IMG/VR virus record: IMGVR_UViG_3300009285_001223
Coordinates: 1-25,767 of that record
Reading direction: 5' to 3' (one strand)
DNA length: 25,767 nucleotides
Origin: a virus
The stretch's first letter is position 1; every line of letters begins with the position of its first letter. The notes under the pieces were generated by a model. That model did no database searches. It was not told the origin of the DNA and saw only the letters and a program-made list of their open reading frames with translations. Both the position numbers and the translations under genes were made by a program. Of the stretch, positions 1 to 25,767 are shown one piece after another.

Positions 1-381
1 GGCGGCTACACCCACCCGCTGCCGGCTGGGCTCACGGCCACCGGGAACCTCTACCTCGGCGGCTACACCCACCCGCTGCCGGCTGGGCTCACGACCACCA
101 GGGACCTCTACCTCGGCGGCTACACCCACCCGCTGCCGGCTGGGCTCACGGCCACCGGGAACCTCTACCTCCGCGGCTACACCCACCCGCTGCCGGCTGG
201 GCTCACGACCACCTGGAACCTCTACCTCCGCGGCTACACCCACCCGCTGCCGGCTGGGCTCACGACCACCTGGAACCTCTACCTCGGCGGCTACACCCAC
301 CCGCTGCCGGCTGGGCTCACGACCACCAGGAACCTCTACCTCGGCGACTACGCCCACCCGCTGCCGGCTGGGCTGACCGCC
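1..381 (+). repeat. 57-bp in-frame tandem repeat, 6.7 copies
   Basis: Units begin at 1, 58, 115, 172, 229, 286 and 343. The first six are 57 bp each and nearly identical; the seventh is recognisable to about 381. The period is exactly 19 codons. Differences cluster at the first codon (Gly or Arg) and at codons 13-16 (Ala/Thr, then Thr, then Gly/Arg/Trp, then Asn/Asp), while the remaining codons are unchanged in the six full copies. The array continues off the left edge. Such homogeneity indicates recent expansion or ongoing homogenisation by recombination or slippage. Confidence 0.95.
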
Positions 382-2130: not shown

Positions 2131-2294
2131 CGAACACCGAAAGCGGGGGAGGCCGGACCCTTCCCCAGCTGAGCGACTACCTCACCCCGGGCCTCATCAC
2201 ACCCGGGCCGTGCCCACCCCAACAGCGACCAACGGCGTCCGGGCCGTGTCGCTCCTACCTGGTTAGTCGGTCAGCTCGAGGTCCATCGGCGTGA
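2127..2294 (+). CDS. Possible small ORF at the convergent junction
   Basis: A 55-codon frame starts with ATG 2127, overlapping the previous stop in ATGA, and ends at TGA 2292-2294, about 30 bp inside the opposing gene. The first 30 codons have the GC-rich third positions of the neighbours, while the rest do not. No ribosome site is visible, the predicted protein is Pro- and Arg-rich, and the frame runs through the hairpin at 2224-2253. It could be a coupled small gene or simply an open frame in an intergenic spacer. Confidence 0.25.
   Translation: MTNTESGGGRTLPQLSDYLTPGLITPGPCPPQQRPTASGPCRSYLVSRSARGPSA
2224..2253. terminator. Hairpin between convergent operons, putative bidirectional terminator
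   Basis: AGCGAC (2224-2229) pairs with GTCGCT (2248-2253), and ACGGC (2232-2236) pairs with GCCGT (2243-2247). This gives an 11-bp stem with a two-base bulge and a six-base loop. It sits just downstream of both converging gene sets. No U-tract follows on either strand, so it could be a weak or Rho-assisted terminator. Confidence 0.45.
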
Positions 2295-2751
2295 AGACGT
2301 CGTCATCCCCCGGCCCGGCGAGCACCGGCGTGCCTGCCCCAGCAGCGGGATGCCTCAGGGTGATCGACCACCCCGCCCACTCCCCGGTCCCGGTCCACTC
2401 GTCCCCGAGGACGAAGCGACCGTAGCGGGCCTCCAGGCCGGCGCGAAGGTTCGCGGCCATGCTCCCCGGCAGGGCGTCCAGCATCGCGCGGTGGCGGTCG
2501 CTGAGGGCAACGTTGACCATGCGCTGCTCCCCCGCCGGCGGCAGCTCCCCGGCCGGTGTGGTGGCCATCGCCAGGTCGTCGTCAAGGCGCCGGGTGAGGT
2601 AGCGCAGCTCGGCCAGCAGCGCGGCCATGCGGCCCGCCAGCTCCTCGCGGTGCACCGTCCCTGCCCCAGCTACGGCCAGGACCCGGGCGAGCCGCTGCAC
2701 CGGGCGCAGCAGCTCCTGGGCCAGGTCGGTCGGGATGCGCAGATGGGGCAT
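2263..2751 (-). CDS. Hypothetical protein, last gene of leftward operon
   Basis: The protein has 162 residues. The start codon lies at 2749-2751, four bases after the stop of the small gene at 2756-2884, and the stop is TAA at 2263-2265. The N-terminal half is Leu/Ala/Arg-rich and helical (LAQELLRPVQRLARVLAVAG and on to residue about 62). Residues about 78-125 (VNVALSDRHRAMLDALPG followed by LEARYGRFVLGDEW) look like a small mixed domain, and the tail is acidic and Gly-rich. No known motif is seen. The ribosome site is weak (GGTAACACC precedes ATG), so coupling to the upstream gene is likely. Function unknown. Confidence 0.7.
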   Translation of the reverse strand: MPHLRIPTDLAQELLRPVQRLARVLAVAGAGTVHREELAGRMAALLAELRYLTRRLDDDLAMATTPAGELPPAGEQRMVNVALSDRHRAMLDALPGSMAANLRAGLEARYGRFVLGDEWTGTGEWAGWSITLRHPAAGAGTPVLAGPGDDDVFTPMDLELTD

Positions 2752-2755
2752 GGTG

Positions 2756-2884
2756 TTACCGGGTAATACCGGGGGCGACCGTCTCGTAGTGGTCGCCGCA
2801 CCACACCATCGGCCGTCCGTGGATGTAGTCGCCAGCGTCCGGGAACCCGTTGCCGCGCTCGCTGATGGTTGCTATCGTGCTCAT
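2756..2884 (-). CDS. Very small protein, 42 residues
   Basis: This gene is too short for usual ORF lists but is well marked. On the minus strand GGAGAGGAGAGAG precedes ATG (2882-2884) by a few bases, and the frame ends with TAA at 2756-2758, four bases before the next gene. It encodes a protein starting MSTIATISERGNGFPD and containing DYIHGRPMVWCGDHYET. Conserved-looking aromatic, His and Cys residues suggest a folded or metal-binding peptide, but no family is recognised. The spacing on its 3' side supports membership of the leftward operon. Confidence 0.55.
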   Translation of the reverse strand: MSTIATISERGNGFPDAGDYIHGRPMVWCGDHYETVAPGITR

Positions 2885-3050
2885 GGTCTCTCTCCTCTCC
2901 AGTCGCTCCGCCCGGGTCCGCCGGGCGCGGGGTCAGCGGCTACAGACCCATGGAGCGCGCAATGCTCTTCGCCATTCCTGACCAGGACCCAGCGTGGTAC
3001 CTCCGGCAGCCTCGCCGCGGGGTCCGGCTTGCCGCAGGGGCCGGGAGAGT

Positions 3051-3308
3051 TTATCTGACCACCACCGGCCGCCACCGGCCCTTGGGATGGCATGATGGCC
3101 GGTCCCACGCCCATCCGGCGACGGGGCGACCGTCCCGGCGGAGGTCGTAGACCCATGACATCCCGGCCTGTTGGCCGTACCTGGGGTAGCAGCCGATATG
3201 GTTTGCCTCGCGCCGGGTGGTGTGGTAGCTGGTGATTACCTCGCCTCCGTGAAGAACAAACACGACACAGTAGCGGGCGTCGGTCGGGGTGGTCATGATG
3301 TCTTGCAT
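3051..3308 (-). CDS. Hypothetical protein, 85 residues
   Basis: ATG at 3306-3308 is preceded by AAGGAG with a seven-base spacing, and the start lies four bases after the preceding gene's stop. An internal ATG 12 bases later is an alternative start. The sequence CVVFVLHGGEVITSYHTTRREAN followed by a Tyr/Trp-rich, basic C-terminal half suggests a small alpha/beta fold. No motif is recognised. The 166 bp downstream (2885-3050) contain no frame with a usable start codon, so they are left without a gene. Confidence 0.65.
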   Translation of the reverse strand: MQDIMTTPTDARYCVVFVLHGGEVITSYHTTRREANHIGCYPRYGQQAGMSWVYDLRRDGRPVAGWAWDRPSCHPKGRWRPVVVR

Positions 3309-3312
3309 GGGG

Positions 3313-3612
3313 TCACTCCTTCTCGGCGGTCAGGTCGAACGGGTGGTAGTCGATGGCGTCGTCGGTGGCGAGCTCCTCGGCCGCGTCGGCTTCGAGGTCG
3401 AGGGTCAGCTGGTACGGGACCCAAGCGTTCGGGGCCTGGCGGTGGAGCCATCGGAGATAGTCGAGGGTCTCGGCCGCGCCCGCTTCGGCGATGGGCTCGG
3501 CGGTGGTCGGGGTGTACCCAGGGGCGAGGATGCGAGTCTCGATGGGCTGGATGGCTTGGACGAGGGCGGTGAGACGGATGTCCAGCCTGTGTCCAGAAAG
3601 GTCGGGGGTCAT
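3313..3612 (-). CDS. Hypothetical acidic protein, 99 residues
   Basis: The frame stays open much further upstream, but the real start is most likely the ATG at 3610-3612. It overlaps the stop of the preceding small gene in ATGA, and the upstream part of the open frame crosses a promoter and repeats. The protein begins MTPDLSGHRLDIRLTALV, contains a helical stretch (AGAAETLDYLRWLHRQAP) and ends with a strongly acidic tail. No family is recognised. It is the second gene of the leftward operon. Confidence 0.65.
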   Translation of the reverse strand: MTPDLSGHRLDIRLTALVQAIQPIETRILAPGYTPTTAEPIAEAGAAETLDYLRWLHRQAPNAWVPYQLTLDLEADAAEELATDDAIDYHPFDLTAEKE

Positions 3613-3770
3613 GACGCACCGCCGATCCGCGCGCCGTAGCCGGCGAGGGACAGCCGGACGGCGTGCCGGTAGGCGGCCGCCAGCGTCCGGTGGGTCACAA
3701 CGCCGCGGTCCGCGCGGCTCGGGTGGCTGTACGCCACGGTCGTTGGGCGGGTGGGGGTTGAGGGGGTCAT
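3609..3770 (-). CDS. Small basic protein, 53 residues, first gene of leftward operon
   Basis: This gene is below common length cut-offs but has the best ribosome site in the operon: AGGAGG five bases before the ATG at 3768-3770. It ends at TGA 3609-3611, overlapping the next ATG. The protein starts MTPSTPTRPTTVAYSHPSRA and ends LSLAGYGARIGGAS. It has many Arg, His and Thr residues and a helical middle (THRTLAAAYRHAVRLSLAG). As the first gene behind the promoter at 3788-3816 it may be an early regulatory or host-takeover protein; this is inference. Confidence 0.6.
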   Translation of the reverse strand: MTPSTPTRPTTVAYSHPSRADRGVVTHRTLAAAYRHAVRLSLAGYGARIGGAS

Positions 3771-3787
3771 CGGTTCCTCCTGGGACC

Positions 3788-3816
3788 AAGATGGCGCACC
3801 TTTCTGGGCTTGTCAA
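3788..3816 (-). promoter_or_regulatory. Leftward sigma-70-like promoter
   Basis: On the minus strand a perfect TTGACA lies at 3811-3816, then 17 bases, then CATCTT at 3788-3793. The -35 box is consensus while the -10 matches only partly. It lies just upstream of AGGAGG and the ATG at 3770, so it would drive the five-gene leftward operon with a very short leader. Confidence 0.5.
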
Positions 3817-3880
3817 GGGGTTGTGACGTCCGAGTTTCAGTACATCGACCCTATCATCATAGGAGGCAGCTCTGGCACGG

Positions 3881-3990
3881 TGGACATCTGTGGACATGGT
3901 CTGACATCTTAGGACACCGAGTGACACCAGAGGACAGGGTGTGTCATCTCTGGACACAGGCTGGACATCCGTGGACCAGGTCTGACATCT
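3881..3990. repeat. Helically phased array of TGGACAT/CTGACAT motifs
   Basis: A GACA-containing heptamer recurs about every 10 bp at 3881, 3891, 3901, 3911, 3921, 3931, 3951, 3961 and 3982, with an inverted copy (GTGTCAT) at 3941 and a decayed GTGGACC at 3971. Bases 3881-3909 and 3962-3990 form a longer direct repeat with three mismatches. The array ends directly upstream of the -35 box of the rightward promoter. One site per helical turn would place bound proteins on one face of the DNA. Confidence 0.8.
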
Positions 3991-3994
3991 GTGC

Positions 3995-4023
3995 TTGACT
4001 CGGCTGCTCCTCGACCCTACGAT
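3995..4023 (+). promoter_or_regulatory. Rightward sigma-70-like promoter
   Basis: TTGACT at 3995-4000, a 17-base spacer and TACGAT at 4018-4023 form a near-consensus promoter. It follows directly on the phased GACA array, so the array probably regulates it. Transcription would run through about 740 bases of untranslated sequence before the gene at 4771. Confidence 0.6.
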
Positions 4024-4125
4024 CAAGGCCAGGACCATGCACGCTCCTCACCGCCTCCGCCGGCCAGGGCAGCTCTCCAGGCCCACGGCTACATCCACCC
4101 TCACAGCCTCCGCCTCCTCCGCCTC

Positions 4126-4161
4126 GGGGAGGGAGGGGGGACTACAGGGGGGAGGGCAGGG
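4126..4161 (+). other. G-run cluster, potential G-quadruplex
   Basis: Six runs of three or more G occur within 36 bases (4126-4129, 4131-4133, 4135-4140, 4147-4152, 4154-4156, 4159-4161) with loops of one to six bases. This satisfies the usual four-tract quadruplex pattern. It is preceded by a pyrimidine-rich CCTCCGCCTC-type tract (4107-4125). It lies in the leader of the rightward promoter. Confidence 0.6.
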
Positions 4162-4413
4162 TGCAGCTCATGCCCCGTCTCCGTCTCCGTCTCCGCCCCC
4201 GGCGAGCTCCTCCTCCTCAAGGTCGACCTGGGTGCAAACCAGCCGGAGGGGCTCAAGGGGCTCGAGGGGTGGGACGGATCGGCCGAGGAGACTAGGCATT
4301 GTCCCACCTAGGATGGTCTGTAACGTGGTGCGTGACAGACTAGACCGGAAGGCCCGCCCCTGTTGGGTCTCCCCCCCATCGCCTCACTTTTGTCATAGGG
4401 CTCACGATCGAGG

Positions 4414-4436
4414 TTCCGGAAAGACATATTATGTCT
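4414..4436. promoter_or_regulatory. Paired palindromes, possible operator
   Basis: TTCCGGAA (4414-4421) abuts AGACATA-T-TATGTCT (4422-4436), a perfect 7-1-7 inverted repeat, unusually AT-rich for this genome. The size and symmetry suit a dimeric helix-turn-helix repressor site. TATTAT inside it resembles a -10 box, but no -35 box is found at the right distance. Confidence 0.45.
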
Positions 4437-4770
4437 ACCTGGGCTCATCGACTGTTGATTCCAGAGCACTTAGTAGTCGAGACGCGCGCGAAATCTCAGG
4501 TTTGGAGACGGGCCGGTGAGAATCTCAGCGTTTTCCACAGCAGCAGGGGCTCGAGGGCCAGGTCGGCTGGGGGTTTCGGCCTGGTCTCGGTTGGAGCGAG
4601 CACCCTCGCCGATGACCCACCGTCGCCCCCAATCGTGCCTGAGCCCAGACGGTAATCCCCCTCCGCCTGCCTACGCAGTTTTGGAAAACCCCACCAGGGC
4701 TGTCGCGGAAGGGGTTCAAGCCGTCGTCGATTCAAGGGGGCATTCTGTGCGTTCTAAGCGGAGGTCTCCG

Positions 4771-5331
4771 ATGAAGGTCGGTCATGGCTGGGTGAGGCGA
4801 GCTGAGTCCCTGGTGTTCGTCTGCGGGGATGGCTACTACGGCTTCGAGGGTATTCCGAGCTGGCGGCCCTACGAGGTGAGTGAGGAGCTGATCGACGACC
4901 TGGGTCGTGACCGGGTGAACGAGCTGCTTGGAAATCCGATTTGGGGCGGCGATAGCTTCTGCTGCATGACTGAGGTGGTCTACCCGCGGAGCATCGGGGG
5001 CATCCTGGCTCTGGCGGCGGACTGGGTTCACTACGGCTGGCTGGCCGGGCAGTACTACCTGGTCATCTGGGGCCGCCAGCGGGGTCTGTGGCACTTTGAC
5101 CCGGCAAAAAGGCGGGAGCTGGAGCCTTGGAAGTGGGTCCACCTGCGTCTGGGGCGGGAGCCTGGACGAGCTGAGCGGGTAGCGGCGTCCGCTGCGGCCT
5201 GGGCGGCACTCCAGGCTCGGCGCGCGGCTGAGCCCGAGCCGCTGCCTCCGAGCGTTGACGAGCTGGTGGCTGGCTTCGAGCGCGATGCTCGCGTCCGTCT
5301 TGGGCTGCCCGCCGAGAGGAGGCTCCAGTGA
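4771..5331 (+). CDS. Hypothetical protein at start of packaging operon
   Basis: The frame is open from further upstream, but the ATG at 4771 has GGAGG six bases before it and marks where codon use becomes typical. The protein has 186 residues. Residues 1-125 look like a compact alpha/beta domain rich in Trp, Tyr and Gly (WVRRAESLVFVCGDGYYGFE, then AADWVHYGWLAGQYYLVIWG). The remainder is an Ala/Arg/Glu-rich helical tail. No family is recognised. Its TGA overlaps the GTG of the probable small terminase, so the two may act in the same process. It is the first gene after the control region. Confidence 0.75.
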   Translation: MKVGHGWVRRAESLVFVCGDGYYGFEGIPSWRPYEVSEELIDDLGRDRVNELLGNPIWGGDSFCCMTEVVYPRSIGGILALAADWVHYGWLAGQYYLVIWGRQRGLWHFDPAKRRELEPWKWVHLRLGREPGRAERVAASAAAWAALQARRAAEPEPLPPSVDELVAGFERDARVRLGLPAERRLQ

Positions 5332-6050
5332 GTCTCTCCCCGGTGATCGGCACGGAGCTGCTCGAGGAGCTGGAGCTGCTGGGGGTCGACACGGCGGTGG
5401 TTCTCCCCGAGTCGATGGAGCCGGCGCAGGTCGAGGAGTTCGAGAAGATGCGGGACGCTTTGGCCCTGCGGGGGACGGGGCGGACCGAGGCGGAGATCGA
5501 GAGTCTGATGGGGTGGCCGGCGGGGCAGGTCAAGACGTGGCGGAAGAAGCAGGCTCCCCTCTGGGGCTGGGCACTGGCGGACTCAATTGAGCGGGCGAAC
5601 CGGCTGACCGGCTACGTGGCGTGCCAGGCGATCAGCCTGATGAACCAGGCGGAGGTAGCTGGGATCAAGATGCTGTACCGGGTGATGACCGAGACGGCGG
5701 TCGAGGTGGCGAGGATGACCGCCGAGGGGAACGCCACGGCGGCGAACCGGCGGCTGGAGACGGGGGCGAACGCTGCTCGGGGGCTGCTGACCTACGCGGG
5801 GCGGCTCCGGGAGCACGCGATTGCGGATTCGAAGGTGGACGCCGAGGGGAAGCTGAGGCCGGCGTTGAGTGCGGAGTTTTTGGAGCGGCTGAAGCGGAGC
5901 ACGCCGGAGTCGACGAAGGCGAGGATCAGCGAGAAGCGGGCGGAGGTGGCTGCGAGAGTGGCGAAGCACCGGAAGGTGGCGCCGAAGCGTGGGGTGAGCG
6001 CGGGGCTGCACCAGACGCTGGCTGCCATGGGGGTCAGTGATGGGGACTGA
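5328..6050 (+). CDS. Probable terminase small subunit
   Basis: The protein has 240 residues. The GTG start at 5328 overlaps the previous stop and has AGGAGG five bases upstream. Residues about 48-73 (RGTGRTEAEIESLMGWPAG followed by QVKTWRKK) fit a DNA-binding helix-turn-helix like those opening many small terminases, which recognise the packaging site on phage DNA and hand it to the large subunit. A long helical region follows (ANRLTGYVACQAISLMNQAEV through the Arg/Ala-rich residues near 150), suitable for ring oligomerisation, then a basic C-terminal tail (residues 185-225) suited to contacts with DNA or the large subunit. Assignment rests on fold features and position; the large terminase is 2.3 kb downstream, further than usual. 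A generic DNA-binding protein is the alternative. Confidence 0.55.
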   Translation: MSLSPVIGTELLEELELLGVDTAVVLPESMEPAQVEEFEKMRDALALRGTGRTEAEIESLMGWPAGQVKTWRKKQAPLWGWALADSIERANRLTGYVACQAISLMNQAEVAGIKMLYRVMTETAVEVARMTAEGNATAANRRLETGANAARGLLTYAGRLREHAIADSKVDAEGKLRPALSAEFLERLKRSTPESTKARISEKRAEVAARVAKHRKVAPKRGVSAGLHQTLAAMGVSDGD

Positions 6051-8148: not shown

Positions 8149-8326
8149 GCACGGCCGCCCCGACGACGTGCCGAGCCCCCAAGGCCGTGGCGAGCTGGTG
8201 ACCGGCCTCGTCCGCCTCGGCTACCGCGGGCAGGACCTCGCCGCCATCATCGCGCCGGGCCGCACCCGGCGGCAGATTGCAGGCGACTTGATCGCGATGC
8301 AGAAGCAGGCCAGGAAGGCTGACTGA
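8135..8326 (+). CDS. Small helix-turn-helix-like protein next to large terminase
   Basis: The protein has 63 residues. The ATG at 8135 has GAGGAGG six bases upstream, which decides it against the longer open frame. Residues 20-55 (ELVTGLVRLGYRGQDLAAII, then RTRRQIAGDLIAM) suggest a three-helix DNA-binding unit with a basic recognition helix; the tail is Lys/Arg-rich. Lying directly before the large terminase, it is a second candidate for a small-terminase or packaging-site factor, alongside the larger protein at 5328-6050. Its size is small for a full small terminase. Confidence 0.65.
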   Translation: MARPEHGRPDDVPSPQGRGELVTGLVRLGYRGQDLAAIIAPGRTRRQIAGDLIAMQKQARKAD

Positions 8327-10008
8327 TGCCCCTAGTCCGAGCGTCCCGGCGCACGAAGCGCGGCAAGGAGGCCCCGCAGGGCGGCCTCTACTGCAAGCGC
8401 TGCGCCGACCTCGGGGTGGACCACTACGCCTTTAAGGCGCAGTGCGAGGGCAGCCTCTACGACTTCGTCAAATACTTCGTCTCGGACTGGGTCATCCCGG
8501 AGATCCACGGGGCCGTCATCGACTGGTTCACCGAGGAGCGCGCCGCGGGGGCCAACGACTTCCTCGTGATGTTCGCCCGGCGGCACCTGAAGAGCACGGT
8601 GTTCTCCATCGGCTATCCCCTGTGGAGGGTTGTCCAGACGCGCGGGGACATCCGGCTCAACCTCGTCATGCTCTCCGGCGGTCTTGCTGCGGCGAAGCTC
8701 AAGAAGATCAAAAACGTCGCCCAGGGCCAGAACTTCAAGCACTTCTGGGGTGACCTGGTTCCCGAACCGACCGCGCAGGGGGCAATCTGGACGAAGGAAG
8801 AGGTCCAGTTCAACAGCCTAGCGACCTACGAGGAGCCGACGATCACGGCCTCTGGGGCAAAGAAGAAGCAGGTCGGCGGGCACTACGACGAAATCATCCT
8901 CGACGACCTTGTGGACGGGTCGGTGTCCTCCTCGACGCTCCAGATCAACGCCGCCCTGTCGTTTCTCTCCGGCGTCGAGGGCATGTGGGTGAATCCGGAC
9001 AAGGCCCTCCTCCTCATCGTCGGGACCGCCTGGCCCGGCGGGTTCTACGAGCCGCTGCTCAAGGACGAGTCATTCAAGAAGTGCATCTTCGGGTGCAGGG
9101 TGGACGACCGCTATCTGGGCTTCATGCAGAGCCGAGGGCTCGACACGTCCAGCTTCAAGCTCAGAGAGCCACTTTACCGGGCGCACGGCAACTACCCGGC
9201 CCGCGAGACCGAGAAGACCCTGGCGCGGGCGAAGAAGCGCTTCAAGTCGATGTATGCAAACCAGATGGACAACGTATTCCTCGACGACAAGCTGCGGCAA
9301 TTCAGGGCCGAGGACATCCAGTACTTCAAGTGGGGCGACGACGAGAAGAAGTCCGTCATGGTCGACGGCGTCTACTACCCGGTCAGGGCGTTGTTCGTTC
9401 AGACCACTGTGGACCCCGGCGGGTCCGGGAAGTACTCCGAGGACGCATCGGCGGTGGTCACCACCGGCTGGGCTCGCGGGATCGGGGTCGGCTTCGTGTT
9501 GGACTCCTGGCACGCCAGGACGACCACCAAGCCGGTCATCGAGGAGACTCTCCGGCAGGCCGAGGCATGGGGATCGCGGTGCATCAGGGCCGAGCATGCC
9601 GCCATGCAGTCGATCCTCACCGACTGGCTCCAGGACGAGATGAGGCGCCGGAAGAAGAGCTTCAAGCTCGACCCGGTTGCTGCCGGGCACCGCAGCAAGG
9701 TGGAGCGCCTGCTCGGGCTCCAGCCGTTCATCGCCAGCCACCAGGTCTACTTCCGTCAGGACCAGCCGGATCTCCCGAACGAGCTGGCGGAGATCGTCAT
9801 CGTCGGCAACGAGATCAAGGGTGCGTCGCCGAACCTCGCCGACGCCCTCGCCTACAGCACCGGGTACTGGCGCAGCTCGCCACCGGCGTTCCTTAGCTCC
9901 GACGAGATCCCCTTCGTCGAGGAGCAGGACGAGATCATGGCTGACCACGAGGTCCGATACAGGCTCCAGTGCCCCACCAGGGCGTCGTTCGTGAGGGCTT
10001 CCCTATGA
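8326..10008 (+). CDS. terL: Terminase large subunit
   Basis: This 560-residue protein is the packaging motor ATPase and headful or end-cutting nuclease. The N-terminal ATPase has a Walker A-like FARRHLKST (residues 83-91), a form common in phage terminases, Walker B DEIILDD (188-194) and a coupling motif GTAWPGG (233-239). The C-terminal RNase H-like nuclease has D363 in VDPGG and a final acidic residue in LADALAY (D506); E423 or a nearby residue may be the middle metal ligand. Residues 23-40 hold C23-x2-C26-x6-H33-x6-C40, a possible zinc knuckle that most large terminases lack. The start overlaps the preceding stop (TGATG) and AGGAAGG lies upstream. The stop overlaps the portal start. Length is normal for the family. 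Confidence 0.93.
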   Translation: MPLVRASRRTKRGKEAPQGGLYCKRCADLGVDHYAFKAQCEGSLYDFVKYFVSDWVIPEIHGAVIDWFTEERAAGANDFLVMFARRHLKSTVFSIGYPLWRVVQTRGDIRLNLVMLSGGLAAAKLKKIKNVAQGQNFKHFWGDLVPEPTAQGAIWTKEEVQFNSLATYEEPTITASGAKKKQVGGHYDEIILDDLVDGSVSSSTLQINAALSFLSGVEGMWVNPDKALLLIVGTAWPGGFYEPLLKDESFKKCIFGCRVDDRYLGFMQSRGLDTSSFKLREPLYRAHGNYPARETEKTLARAKKRFKSMYANQMDNVFLDDKLRQFRAEDIQYFKWGDDEKKSVMVDGVYYPVRALFVQTTVDPGGSGKYSEDASAVVTTGWARGIGVGFVLDSWHARTTTKPVIEETLRQAEAWGSRCIRAEHAAMQSILTDWLQDEMRRRKKSFKLDPVAAGHRSKVERLLGLQPFIASHQVYFRQDQPDLPNELAEIVIVGNEIKGASPNLADALAYSTGYWRSSPPAFLSSDEIPFVEEQDEIMADHEVRYRLQCPTRASFVRASL

Positions 10009-12182
10009 TCCACGCGCAGGACCCCGTCGAAGGCGTCGTCGAGCTTGACCTCTCCCCCGAGGAGGAGAAGAAGCTCGTCGACGGCCTCATGAAGTCGTTC
10101 GACCAGGCCCTCCAGGACCGCGAGGACTCCGGGCTGGACAAGCAGGCGCAGAACGCCGTGCTCCAGTACCACTCCGCCCTCGACATCGAGCAGAAGGACC
10201 CCCAGGGGTCGCACTTGGACATGGCCAGCACCCGAAAGCTCACCGAGCAGGCGATCAGCCGCTTCATGAACCCGATCTTCCAACGCGACCAGATCGTCAT
10301 GGGCAAGCCGAGGTTCCCTCAGTGGGTGGACTTCGCCAAGGAAGCCGAGGGAATGGCCGACTGGATGCTGGACCGGACGAAGCTGCGGCTGTTCCTCGAG
10401 CCGTTCCTCAAGCAGGCGTTCGTCTTTCCGAAGGCCGTGGCGAAGATCCCCTTCAAACGGAAGCTCCGGAAGGTCAAGCGGTACATCCACGAGGTCGAGA
10501 AGGCCCCGGGGTCGATCACGAAGTCCGACAAGGGCCTCGAGACCCGGCAGGGCGACGACGGGAAGGTCTACGAGCGGCACTGGGGCCTCCGGGACAAGAA
10601 CGACCCGAAGATCACCGCCGTCGAGATGGAAGAGGTCGAGGCGGGAAGCTGGCCGGAGACGGTCCCCTGGCAGGACTTCATCCACCCCGTCCCGTGCTCG
10701 GACGTCTACACCTCCTCGTGGGTCACTCACCGCACCTTTCCTGGGCCTGACGACATCACCAGGGCCATCCAGGCCGGCGTCTACCGCGAGAACGCGACCA
10801 AGGCCGACGGGGAGTCCGTGCCCATCCTAAAGGCCATGGGCGACCCCACGGCGAAGCCTGACGAGTCGATGGGCATCTCCACCGCCGGCGTCCGCGGCGA
10901 CGGCGAGGAGGCCAGTGACGCCGGCGAGGATTCTGGGTTCTTCGAGATCCTCGAGTTCTACACCACCCACGCTGGCGACGAGGTGATCATCACCATCGAC
11001 CGCCAGTCAAAGACGGTCCTCCGGGCGGTCGAGAACTTCTACATGGAGGACCAGCGGCCATTCGTGACCTGGAGCTACGAGGCCACGCTGAACAACGTGG
11101 ATGGGATCAGCCTGTGCTTCATCCTCGAGCCCTATCACCGGGCGATCTCCTGCCTGTTCAACCAGGCCCTCGACAGCGGCTCGCTGGCCCTGGAGAAGAT
11201 GACCTTCATCGACGCGAATCTTGAGGCCGGACGCTACTTCCCGGACAACAAGGGCAAAGGCGGGGTCTTCACTGTCAACGTGGCCGGGAAGGTCTCTGAC
11301 AGCATCGCCCAGTTCGACCTCGGGACGCAGATCGGCTCGGTGCAGTACCTGATCTCCTCTCTCCAGTCGGAGATGCGTGAGCTGGCGTCGCTGACGCCCT
11401 ACCACTCCGGTATCGAGACCATCCAGCGGCCGACGGCCACCGGGCAGGTCGCCCTCATCGAGGAGGGGAAGCAGCCCCAGTACAACCGGATGGACAGCCT
11501 CCGGACCTGTCTCTCGGCCCTGGTCATGATGATGTTCGGCCGCTATCGGCAGTTCAACCCGGTTGACTTCGAGTACTACGTGCAGTCGAAGGACCCGAAG
11601 AGCCGCGAGCTGTCCTACGCGGTCATCAAGTGGCCGGCTGAGTCCTGGCGCCGGTGTGTGAACATCGAGCTGGCCATCTCCTCCGAGCAGATGAACCGCG
11701 ACATGCGGAAGCAGGCGATGACCGCCCTGGTGGACAAGATGCCCCAGGTCTTCGAGCAGGTCATGGGCCTCGCCAACATGGCCATGTCGCCGGCGCCAAC
11801 CGCGGTGATCGCGCGGCAGCTTCTCGACTTCCAGCTGAAGAACATCATCCAACCGTGGCTCGAGGAGTTCGAGGTCCTCGGGCGGGAGGCACTCGACCTT
11901 GGAGAAGCAATCGACACCGGCGCAGCCTGGCAGCAGCAGCTCATGCAAATGCAGCAGCAGATGGAGATGCTGGGTTCTGAGGTGCAGTCAAAGGATGCTC
12001 AACTGGGTGAGATGGCACGATCACTTCACCACGTCTTCTCCCAGTTCGTCGCCGCCACTGGAAAGATGCCTCAACCCACCCCCTTCGGTCGATCATCGTC
12101 GTCTGGACCGCCTCAAGCGGCAGCCGGGATGGGCGGAGGTTCTGAAGTACCTGGAGGCGCAGATGCAGCCCTTGCTGGTTGA
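10005..12182 (+). CDS. Portal protein
   Basis: The protein has 725 residues. The ATG at 10005 overlaps the terminase stop and GAGGG lies seven bases upstream; an ATG 36 bases earlier is less likely. Portals form the dodecameric ring through which DNA is packaged and to which the tail attaches. Evidence is position right after the large terminase, length, and family-like stretches such as LDRTKLRLFLEPFLKQAFVF, PWQDFIHPVPCSDVY, and TIQRPTATGQVALIEE (about residue 472-487), followed by a long helical region and a Gln/Met-rich coiled coil (WQQQLMQMQQQMEML) near residue 645. The last 30 residues are Ser/Gly/Ala-rich with atypical AT-ending codons, because another frame there looks coding. The size is like portals of P22-type short-tailed phages. 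Confidence 0.9.
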   Translation: MIHAQDPVEGVVELDLSPEEEKKLVDGLMKSFDQALQDREDSGLDKQAQNAVLQYHSALDIEQKDPQGSHLDMASTRKLTEQAISRFMNPIFQRDQIVMGKPRFPQWVDFAKEAEGMADWMLDRTKLRLFLEPFLKQAFVFPKAVAKIPFKRKLRKVKRYIHEVEKAPGSITKSDKGLETRQGDDGKVYERHWGLRDKNDPKITAVEMEEVEAGSWPETVPWQDFIHPVPCSDVYTSSWVTHRTFPGPDDITRAIQAGVYRENATKADGESVPILKAMGDPTAKPDESMGISTAGVRGDGEEASDAGEDSGFFEILEFYTTHAGDEVIITIDRQSKTVLRAVENFYMEDQRPFVTWSYEATLNNVDGISLCFILEPYHRAISCLFNQALDSGSLALEKMTFIDANLEAGRYFPDNKGKGGVFTVNVAGKVSDSIAQFDLGTQIGSVQYLISSLQSEMRELASLTPYHSGIETIQRPTATGQVALIEEGKQPQYNRMDSLRTCLSALVMMMFGRYRQFNPVDFEYYVQSKDPKSRELSYAVIKWPAESWRRCVNIELAISSEQMNRDMRKQAMTALVDKMPQVFEQVMGLANMAMSPAPTAVIARQLLDFQLKNIIQPWLEEFEVLGREALDLGEAIDTGAAWQQQLMQMQQQMEMLGSEVQSKDAQLGEMARSLHHVFSQFVAATGKMPQPTPFGRSSSSGPPQAAAGMGGGSEVPGGADAALAG

Positions 12183-17460: not shown

Positions 17461-17513
17461 CCCCCACCCTAGGGTCGCACCCGAAGAGCGGTTCCCGGCC
17501 GCCTGGGTGGGGG
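17461..17513 (+). terminator. Long GC-rich stem-loop, possible terminator or RNA processing site
   Basis: CCCCCACCC (17461-17469) is complementary to GGGTGGGGG (17505-17513), a 9-bp stem with a 35-base loop. A second small hairpin, GTCCC-GAAC-GGGAC (17528-17541), sits just before the ribosome site of the next gene. The 105-base gap is the longest within this part of the rightward operon except near the capsid gene, and both hairpins fall in it. No U-tract follows. Confidence 0.4.
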
Positions 17514-17554
17514 GCAATTCCGGGGGAGTCCCGAACGGGACGGGAGAGGCCGAC

Positions 17555-24618: not shown

Positions 24619-25497
24619 ATGGCCTTCTTCGGTCTCGACGGGAAATTCGGGTCCTGGATGGACAACCCCAAGTTCATGAGCCCGGACTTCCTCGGCGTCC
24701 GGGGCAGCAATACCGGCGCGGTCAGGCCCGGAGGAGGCCCCGGTCAGAGCAGGCTGGTGAAGCCGGAGGCGCCGGGCGGACAAGTACGGAATCCTACTCG
24801 TCCATACCCGGCGTTGCCCTCAGGCGACGATGAACTCTTCCCGTGGGAGGTCGTCCCTCGTTGGCCTGGGCAGATGATGGGGGGTGGTACCGGTACCGGG
24901 CCAACGCCCAACGACATGAGCGACGTCGAGGACTGGGACGAGTTCTACAAGCGCCGCAAGATGGCGATGATCCTCCGGGGTGACCGCCCGACGCTCGACC
25001 TCGCCGGGCTCCTCGGCAAGGCCGGCTGGAAGGGCGGGGGCGTCCCGGAGAAGTGGGACGGCGGGGCGTCGATCGCCAAGGCGAAAGTGGACCCCATGAG
25101 CGTTATCAACGCCGCCAAGCCGGGGATCATGGAAGAGATGAACCGCGGCTTTGCCTCGGCAGCGATGCGCCAGGGCGCCACCGGGGCGATGATGGGGTCT
25201 GGCTACTCACAGGCCCTCGGCGGGGTGGCGCGGAAGGCCGCAAACGACATCGGGCAGGTCACCATGGACACGCTGTTCAAGAGCAGCGAGTCGGCCGCCG
25301 ATCGGGAGCAGCAGGCCCTGGAGTCGGCGCGGGACCGGTCGCTCAGCGCCTGGGGGACCCACGGCAACTGGGAGGCCGACGCCGGGAAGGAGTACTTCTC
25401 AAACCTGATGGGGCTCCTGGGGATGTTCGGTGGGAACCTCGACGAGTACAACGTGGACTTTAGCGGTCTCGGTGACGCGCTGGGTGGGGGTGCGTGA
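24619..25497 (+). CDS. Candidate internal/ejection protein, 292 residues
   Basis: ATG 24619 follows the previous stop by three bases with a G-rich site upstream. The first 90 residues are disordered and Gly/Pro-rich. Residues about 155-235 form a helical region rich in Ala, Gly and Met (INAAKPGIMEEMNRGFASAA, ATGAMMGSGYSQALGGVARK), which could insert in membranes, and a charged helix follows (SAADREQQALESARDRSLSA). This composition resembles ejection proteins of short-tailed phages, which form a channel in the cell envelope. The C-terminus is Gly/Asp-rich. The stop overlaps the ATG of the acidic gene. Confidence 0.6.
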   Translation: MAFFGLDGKFGSWMDNPKFMSPDFLGVRGSNTGAVRPGGGPGQSRLVKPEAPGGQVRNPTRPYPALPSGDDELFPWEVVPRWPGQMMGGGTGTGPTPNDMSDVEDWDEFYKRRKMAMILRGDRPTLDLAGLLGKAGWKGGGVPEKWDGGASIAKAKVDPMSVINAAKPGIMEEMNRGFASAAMRQGATGAMMGSGYSQALGGVARKAANDIGQVTMDTLFKSSESAADREQQALESARDRSLSAWGTHGNWEADAGKEYFSNLMGLLGMFGGNLDEYNVDFSGLGDALGGGA

Positions 25498-25767
25498 TGA
25501 GCAGGCCATTGACCCCGGAAGAGCTTGAACTCCTCGAACTAGAAGATTTGGATGAGCTTGAAGAACTGCCGCTTGAAGAACTGGAAGAAGAGGATGATTT
25601 TGAACTACTGGACGAGGAGCCGCTGCTGGACGATCTAGAACTCGAAGACGAAGATTTTGACGAACTAGAAGACTTTGAGGAACTAGAAGATCTAGACGAA
25701 GAGCTCGATCTGCTGCTTGAAGACGAAGAAGTCACAGATGAAGAAGACACAGACGAAGAACTTGAAG
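25497..25767 (+). CDS. Asp/Glu/Leu-rich low-complexity protein, 3' truncated by the window
   Basis: ATG 25497 overlaps the TGA of the previous gene (ATGA is at 25497-25500), and the frame stays open to the window end, giving at least 90 residues. After MSRPLTPEELELLELEDLD almost every residue is Asp, Glu or Leu, with rare Phe, Pro, Thr and Val. Base content is clearly lower in GC than its neighbours, and codons GAA, CTA and CTT replace the GC-ending ones used elsewhere. Short DNA blocks such as GAACTAGAAGA recur. The opposite strand reads as poly-Ser and is rejected. An acidic disordered protein, DNA mimic or internal virion component is possible; no family is known to me. Confidence 0.65.
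   Translation, partial: MSRPLTPEELELLELEDLDELEELPLEELEEEDDFELLDEEPLLDDLELEDEDFDELEDFEELEDLDEELDLLLEDEEVTDEEDTDEELE

What the first reader, a model, noticed from the sequence alone, without database searches (positions are those of the whole stretch)
3881..3990. Helically phased array of GACA motifs between divergent promoters
About ten copies of a T(G)GACA-type heptamer recur every 10 bp for 110 bp, one with inverted orientation, and 29 bp of the array are repeated 81 bp apart with three mismatches. Spacing by one DNA turn is unusual and suits cooperative binding of a protein along one face. It abuts a rightward -35 box that contains the related TTGACT. It may be a switch that decides between leftward and rightward expression, or a replication initiator site.
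Basis: partly seen in the sequence, partly recalled or inferred. Interest (0 to 1): 0.7.

Follow-up and report, generated by a model that had tools for sequence, protein, structure and literature searches.

The report
Ten-base-phased GACA array at module junction
A short viral DNA sign, GACA, is repeated once per turn of the helix about eleven times in a non-coding gap between two sets of genes of an unknown tailed phage; it is real and is most likely a docking strip for a DNA-binding protein at the site where the phage genome is cut and packaged or where late genes are switched on.

Summary
The array is real and unique in the window. Eleven in-register units, nine with exact GACA, fill 3882-3993 at 10-bp steps (one 11-bp step). 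Six are consecutive, against a maximum of 3 in 200 shuffles. It lies in a 1-kb non-coding gap (3771-4770) between a short leftward operon and the rightward packaging/structural operon, and it abuts a sigma70-like promoter (3995-4023). Similar 10-bp KGACA arrays, with conserved motif and variable spacers, occur in unrelated phages: beside terminase or HNH genes, over late promoters, inside replication-initiator genes. The closest match in sequence and layout is in Streptomyces podoviruses (Beephvirinae), where the array lies inside the 253-275-bp direct terminal repeat, upstream of terL. T7 has CCTAAAG arrays, at 13-bp steps, beside its terminal repeat. The window's terminase is weakly related to those of terminal-repeat podoviruses. 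Best reading: a protein-loading array at the genome-end/packaging junction (about 0.42). Main rival: an activator/operator array for the adjoining promoter (about 0.35). No read data or binding experiments; genome ends and binding protein are unknown.

The parts
3882..3993 (+). array of 11 in-register units (consensus KGACAYC, 10-bp steps, one 11-bp step at 3953-3964); 20-bp super-period GGACA/TGACA
3574..3597 (-). 24-nt exact inverted copy of array segment 3949-3972 (TCTGGACACAGGCTGGACATCCGT), codons 6-13 of the leftward 99-aa gene
   Evidence: E 2e-7; 0 expected with up to 3 mismatches
3995..4023 (+). sigma70-like promoter TTGACT-17-TACGAT that abuts the array
   Evidence: the only consensus promoter in 2200-5400; 0.3 expected
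3771..4770 (.). non-coding junction between leftward small genes and rightward late genes; holds the array
   Evidence: no GC3 bias in the gap, strong GC3 bias in flanking genes
3612..3770 (-). first leftward ORF (53 aa), AGGAGG ribosome site before its ATG; no family match
3316..3612 (-). second leftward ORF (99 aa); its 5' end carries the inverted array copy
2266..2751 (-). leftward ORF (162 aa) with a possible strand-helix-helix segment at residues 78-110; candidate DNA-binding protein, weak evidence
   Evidence: pLDDT 52; no Pfam/PHROG match; no significant fold match
4771..5331 (+). first rightward late ORF (ATG 4771, GGAGG 4760-4764), unknown function
5328..6050 (+). 240-aa ORF, possible small terminase (HTH-like N terminus, long helices)
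   Evidence: HTH_68, E 0.015, below cut-off; pLDDT 53
8326..10008 (+). large terminase
   Evidence: phrog_38, 1.9e-37
9969..12182 (+). portal / head-tail connector
   Evidence: phrog_332 1.3e-14; phrog_1216 1.5e-11

Best explanation
The array is a loading strip for an oligomeric DNA-binding protein at the junction between the two gene modules of a T7-like podovirus, most likely the genome-end/concatemer junction. Each KGACAYC unit binds one subunit or domain. The 20-bp super-period suggests dimers placed head to tail, and a nucleoprotein stretch of about 110 bp marks the place where packaging terminase acts or where the ends are processed. The adjoining rightward promoter may be influenced by the same complex, and the inverted partial copy 350 bp away may be an accessory site. 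Shown: the array, its uniqueness, the non-coding junction, the promoter match, the late-gene layout, the extra copy, and the same kind of array inside the terminal repeats of Beephvirinae. Inferred: that the window's junction is a genome end, that a packaging protein binds, and the stoichiometry.
For: (1) Layout: leftward small genes, then a 1-kb non-coding gap with the array, then rightward late genes with TerS-like, TerL, portal, scaffold-sized and capsid-sized ORFs. Immanuel3 has leftward genes, DTR, then rightward terL. ICBM1, VpV262 and tf have two divergent modules separated by the DTR. For SIO1, PMC6775973 describes an ORF-free region between two modules that resembles the DTRs of ICBM1/ICBM3. 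(2) The closest KGACAYS arrays with diverged spacers lie in Beephvirinae, inside the 275/253-bp DTR, 100% identical at both ends. PMC9753666 confirms 253-bp DTRs and podovirus morphology. The array plus the DTR right end is the most conserved block of about 1 kb there. (3) In 5 of 8 DTR podoviruses the most strongly 10-14-bp-phased stretch of the genome is within 1 kb of an end (T7, T3, Immanuel3, phiKMV, ICBM1); T7 has CCTAAAG at 13-bp steps beside its DTR. (4) The window's TerL matches four phage records: three of DTR cobaviruses (Lentibacter ICBM1/ICBM3) and one unclassified. (5) T3/T7 packaging specificity maps to within 5% of the termini (PMC3276506).
Against: Genome ends of the window phage are unknown; no reads are available. 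In the Beephvirinae sister genus Manuelvirus (TerL about 87% identical) the array is mostly lost while the DTR end motif stays, which does not suit an essential terminase site. The array reads GACA toward terL in the window but TGTC toward terL in Beephvirinae. TerL similarity between the two is only 25%, so the likeness may be convergent. Phased repeats are not confined to DTR ends: P2 (cos) also ranks 1 at its end in the same scan, and VpV262 and tf rank 16.
Confidence: 0.42

Rival explanations
1. Operator/activator array: a phage regulator polymerises on the GACA units and activates or represses the rightward late promoter at 3995-4023, and perhaps the leftward operon through the inverted site at 3574-3597 (DNA looping or roadblock).
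For: The array ends within about 10 bp of the -35 box. In other phages TGTC/GACA arrays lie just upstream of HNH/TerS/TerL operons, with a -10 box 14-15 or 25-27 nt after the last unit (L007, L026, L030, L034, L050, L090, L108, L015, L042), in some 3-16 bp after a small regulator-like gene. An extra 24-nt site lies in the divergent operon.
Against: Orientation is opposite: those promoters are on the TGTC side. On the window's TGTC side the best -10 (TATGAT) is 21 nt away, out of that phase. The rightward leader would be about 740 nt. No regulator gene is identified.
Confidence: 0.35
2. Replication origin iterons: an initiator protein binds the array and opens a nearby AT-richer stretch.
For: At least 12 of the 119 GACA-array loci carry the array inside initiator-like genes. 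The window array lies in a local AT-richer stretch (44-48% against 20-34% in the flanks).
Against: No initiator, helicase or primase gene recognised in the window; the array is not inside a gene; AT-rich stretches are moderate.
Confidence: 0.14
3. Centromere-like partition site bound by a ribbon-helix-helix protein such as the 162-aa leftward product.
For: GACACCTCC arrays lie within about 1 kb of ParA plus a small helix protein in L013, L036 and L096. The 162-aa model has a strand-helix-helix segment.
Against: No ParA-like gene in the window; the model is low confidence; no family or fold match.
Confidence: 0.05
4. Chance or neutral tandem duplication without function.
For: 81-bp internal repeat; no close relative to test conservation.
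Against: The motif is conserved while spacers differ, six exact steps against at most 3 in shuffles, and the same motif and spacing with free spacers recurs in unrelated phages.
Confidence: 0.04

Closest known systems
GACA/TGTC array inside the direct terminal repeat of Streptomyces phages Immanuel3 and FlowerPower (Beephvirinae)
   Same: KGACAY units at 10-bp steps, GC-rich podovirus, non-coding divergent junction upstream of terL
   Different: opposite orientation relative to terL; fewer units; known to lie in the DTR, which is unknown for the window; TerL only 25% identical
Short-repeat arrays beside the T7/T3 terminal repeats (called SRL/SRR from memory; CCTAAAG computed here)
   Same: heptamer-like motif, many phased copies in non-coding DNA beside the genome end of a podovirus with promoters nearby
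   Different: motif CCTAAAG and 13-bp step; the arrays' function is not established as far as I know
TGTC arrays upstream of HNH/TerS/TerL operons in other phages (L007, L026, L030, L034, L092, L108 and others)
   Same: 10-bp TGACA/GGACA units, variable spacers, start of the packaging operon, promoter-linked
   Different: promoter on the TGTC side in phase at 14-15 or 25-27 nt; mostly AT-richer flanks; regulator-like gene next to some arrays
GACA arrays inside initiator-like genes (L004, L033, L104 and others)
   Same: 10-bp GGACA units with free spacers
   Different: inside a coding sequence; no such gene in the window
OmpR/PhoB-type tandem direct-repeat sites (from general knowledge)
   Same: about 10-bp direct half-sites, 20 bp per dimer, upstream of -35
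   Different: usually 2-6 half-sites; no response regulator found in the window

Membership tests
DTR-associated short-repeat array (T7/Beephvirinae kind) | several phased copies of a short motif in non-coding DNA | tested here: met
DTR-associated short-repeat array (T7/Beephvirinae kind) | lies in or next to a direct terminal repeat | not testable with these tools
   the record is a linear fragment and no reads are available
DTR-associated short-repeat array (T7/Beephvirinae kind) | junction of late and divergent gene modules in a podovirus-like genome | tested here: met
   compared
DTR-associated short-repeat array (T7/Beephvirinae kind) | T7 motif CCTAAAG at 12-13-bp steps | tested here: not met
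   motif is KGACAYC at 10-bp steps
DTR-associated short-repeat array (T7/Beephvirinae kind) | terminase related to DTR phages | tested here: inconclusive
   only weak hits: three records of DTR cobaviruses and one unclassified phage, 23-24% identity, E about 5e-6
Late-promoter activator array (TGTC type) | promoter on the TGTC side, -10 at 14-15 or 25-27 nt | tested here: not met
   TATGAT at 21 nt on that side; the strong promoter is on the GACA side
Late-promoter activator array (TGTC type) | regulator gene immediately upstream | tested here: not met
   no recognisable regulator beside the array
Initiator iterons | inside or next to an initiator gene | tested here: not met
   no initiator, helicase or primase among the window proteins that were scanned
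Partition centromere | ParA/ParR-type genes adjacent | tested here: not met

The most novel reading that the evidence does not exclude
Unrelated phages share a 10-bp GACA binding code read by one widespread type of DNA-binding domain, used as a loading array in several roles (late promoters, initiator genes, genome ends). The window and the Beephvirinae would be the genome-end form, making such arrays a general end-marking or packaging signal of terminal-repeat podoviruses.
Probability: 0.15. Interest if true: 0.7.

Novelty: new variant of a known kind. Interest (0 to 1): 0.45.

Why it matters
Phased short repeats near podovirus genome ends are known from T7, but their function and binding protein are, as far as I know, unsettled. 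A second motif with one-turn spacing, found in Streptomyces phage terminal repeats and at the module junction of an uncultured podovirus, gives a compact test of whether such arrays are packaging/end signals or transcription control. It would also help to place genome ends in metagenomic phages assembled across the junction.

Tried and rejected
Near relatives: TerL, portal and MCP scans of viral contigs gave nothing or only 23-26% relatives without the array; exact array strings gave nothing; phage DNA similarity gave none. The HTH/RHH regulator hunt in the window gave no significant family or fold match; both structure models were low confidence. Coding repeat rejected: the 10-bp period is not a codon multiple and the gap has no GC3 bias. 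'Packaging neighbourhood is enriched' as a bare count rejected as weak: TerL within 4 kb is common in viral contigs; only the tight, oriented cases count. A control motif (ACAG) also gave 120 loci, so raw hit numbers mean little; the difference lies in spacer divergence above 0.4 (36 GACA versus 13 ACAG loci, the latter including about six copies of one family). The phased-repeat test at genome ends is only suggestive, because the cos phage P2 also ranks first. The literature library held no paper on these arrays.

Full report
OBSERVATION. The window is a linear 25.8-kb virus record. From 3882 to 3993, units of the form KGACAYC follow each other every 10 bp: GACA at 3883, 3893, 3903, 3913, 3923, 3933, (3943 GTCA), 3953, 3964, (3974 GACC), 3984. 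There is one 11-bp step, at 3953-3964. Units alternate GGACA and TGACA, so self-identity is higher at lag 20 (0.55) than at lag 10 (0.41). The stretch is the strongest 10/20-bp-periodic window in the record (0.509; next 0.399; shuffle maximum 0.469). Six exact steps exceed the shuffle maximum of 3, and no other tetramer forms such a run of 4 or more at 9-13-bp steps. The 'inverted' unit can equally be a direct unit with one substitution. At 10.5 bp per turn the array drifts by about 137 degrees, so a single face is an approximation.

SURROUNDINGS. The array sits in a non-coding gap, 3771-4770. Codon-position GC is flat in the gap, while all flanking genes show strong GC3 bias. To the left is a leftward set of small ORFs (53, 99, 85 and 162 aa and others) without family matches. 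To the right, rightward genes start at 4771 (GGAGG then ATG) and run through a possible small terminase (5328-6050), large terminase (8326), portal (9969), scaffold-sized ORF and capsid-sized ORF. A promoter match, TTGACT-17-TACGAT at 3995-4023, directly follows the array and is the only one in 2200-5400. A leftward TATGAT without a -35, and a TTGACA near 3815 with a poor -10, are the only leftward candidates (sequence inspection).

A SECOND SITE. Part of the array (3949-3972, including the 11-bp step) recurs exactly, 24 of 24, inverted at 3574-3597 in codons 6-13 of the 99-aa leftward gene (expected 0). Array units differ from each other by 15-30%, so this is either a recent copy or a site under constraint.

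THE SAME KIND OF ARRAY ELSEWHERE. A scan for five GACA at 10-bp steps hit its limit at 119 loci. A control motif (ACAG) also hit its limit, but arrays with conserved motif and strongly diverged spacers are more frequent for GACA (36 versus 13 with spacer divergence over 0.4, and the 13 include about six copies of one family). Gene-neighbour clustering shows several classes. (a) Arrays just upstream of HNH/TerS/TerL or between TerL and portal, mostly reading TGTC toward those genes, several with a -10 box 14-15 or 25-27 nt after the last unit. (b) Arrays inside initiator-like genes. (c) Arrays near ParA.

CLOSEST MATCH. A pattern nearer to the window's (KGACAYS) found, among arrays with diverged spacers, a family of Streptomyces phages. 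In Immanuel3 and FlowerPower the array lies inside the direct terminal repeat (275 and 253 bp, 100% identical at the two record ends), with terL starting about 400 bp after the repeat. Their 253-bp repeats and podovirus shape are published (PMC9753666). In an alignment of five members, the array with the motif AACAACCCC(C/G)GGG and the repeat's right end is the best-conserved block of about 1 kb. In the sister genus Manuelvirus the units are mostly lost while the end motif is kept, so the array is not indispensable there.

GENOME ENDS. The window layout (divergent modules meeting at an ORF-free gap, late side beginning 3.5 kb before terL) matches terminal-repeat podoviruses such as ICBM1, VpV262 and tf. 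PMC6775973 describes an ORF-free region between two modules of SIO1 that resembles the terminal repeats of its relatives. The window's TerL has only four weak phage matches: three records of terminal-repeat cobaviruses and one unclassified phage. T7 carries CCTAAAG at 13-bp steps right beside its terminal repeat. In 5 of 8 terminal-repeat podoviruses the most phased stretch of the genome is within 1 kb of an end; among four other phages this was true of one (P2). This is suggestive, not proof.

HOW IT MOST LIKELY WORKS. A protein loads along the DNA, one subunit per turn and probably as dimers per 20 bp, making a stiff nucleoprotein stretch. I favour a role at the packaging/genome-end junction (0.42) over control of the adjoining promoter (0.35), origin iterons (0.14), a centromere (0.05) or no function (0.04). 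The first two are not exclusive: T7 too has its promoters beside its end repeats. Shown steps: array, uniqueness, junction, promoter match, extra copy, analogues in terminal repeats. Inferred: genome end, binder, effect.

NOVELTY. Phased short-repeat arrays beside podovirus ends are a known kind (T7). The motif, the one-turn step and the Beephvirinae parallel appear not to have been described in the papers searched, hence 'new variant of a known kind'. Membership is not claimed, because the defining feature (a terminal repeat at this place) could not be tested.

Noticed in passing
window 17462-17526 (+): Rfam int-alpA RNA match (40.7 bits, gathering 35.8) in a short gap inside the structural gene run, with no integrase recognised in the window.
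   Followed up: no
window 1-374: 57-bp tandem repeat (95% matches) coding GYTHPLPAGLTTTRNLYL units in an ORF open at the contig end; its complement is also an open frame.
   Followed up: no
window 25494-25766: very acidic Glu/Asp/Leu-rich ORF running off the contig end, with 15-18-bp repeats.
   Followed up: no
window 3845-3859 and 4011-4025: 15-bp direct repeat TCGACCCTA(TC/CG)ATCA, 13 of 15, flanking the array; the right copy holds the -10 box.
   Followed up: partly
window 4423-4435 and 4122-4161: palindrome GACATATTATGTC and G-rich tracts in the non-coding junction.
   Followed up: no
L004, L023, L091, L033, L038, L104: GACA 10-bp arrays embedded in the coding linker of phage initiator-like proteins, like the lambda origin inside gene O.
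   Followed up: partly
L007, L026, L030, L034, L050, L090, L108: TGTC arrays whose last unit sits at the -35 place of a promoter with TATAAT-like -10 at 14-15 nt (25 in L034), at or near the start of packaging operons in several; looks like a late-activator family.
   Followed up: partly
L314:987-1033: Solirubrobacter soli chromosome: KGACA array directly after an FtsK/TraB-like translocase gene of what looks like an integrative element.
   Followed up: no
L013, L036, L096: GACACCTCC arrays near a ParA gene and a small helix protein, possible centromere.
   Followed up: no
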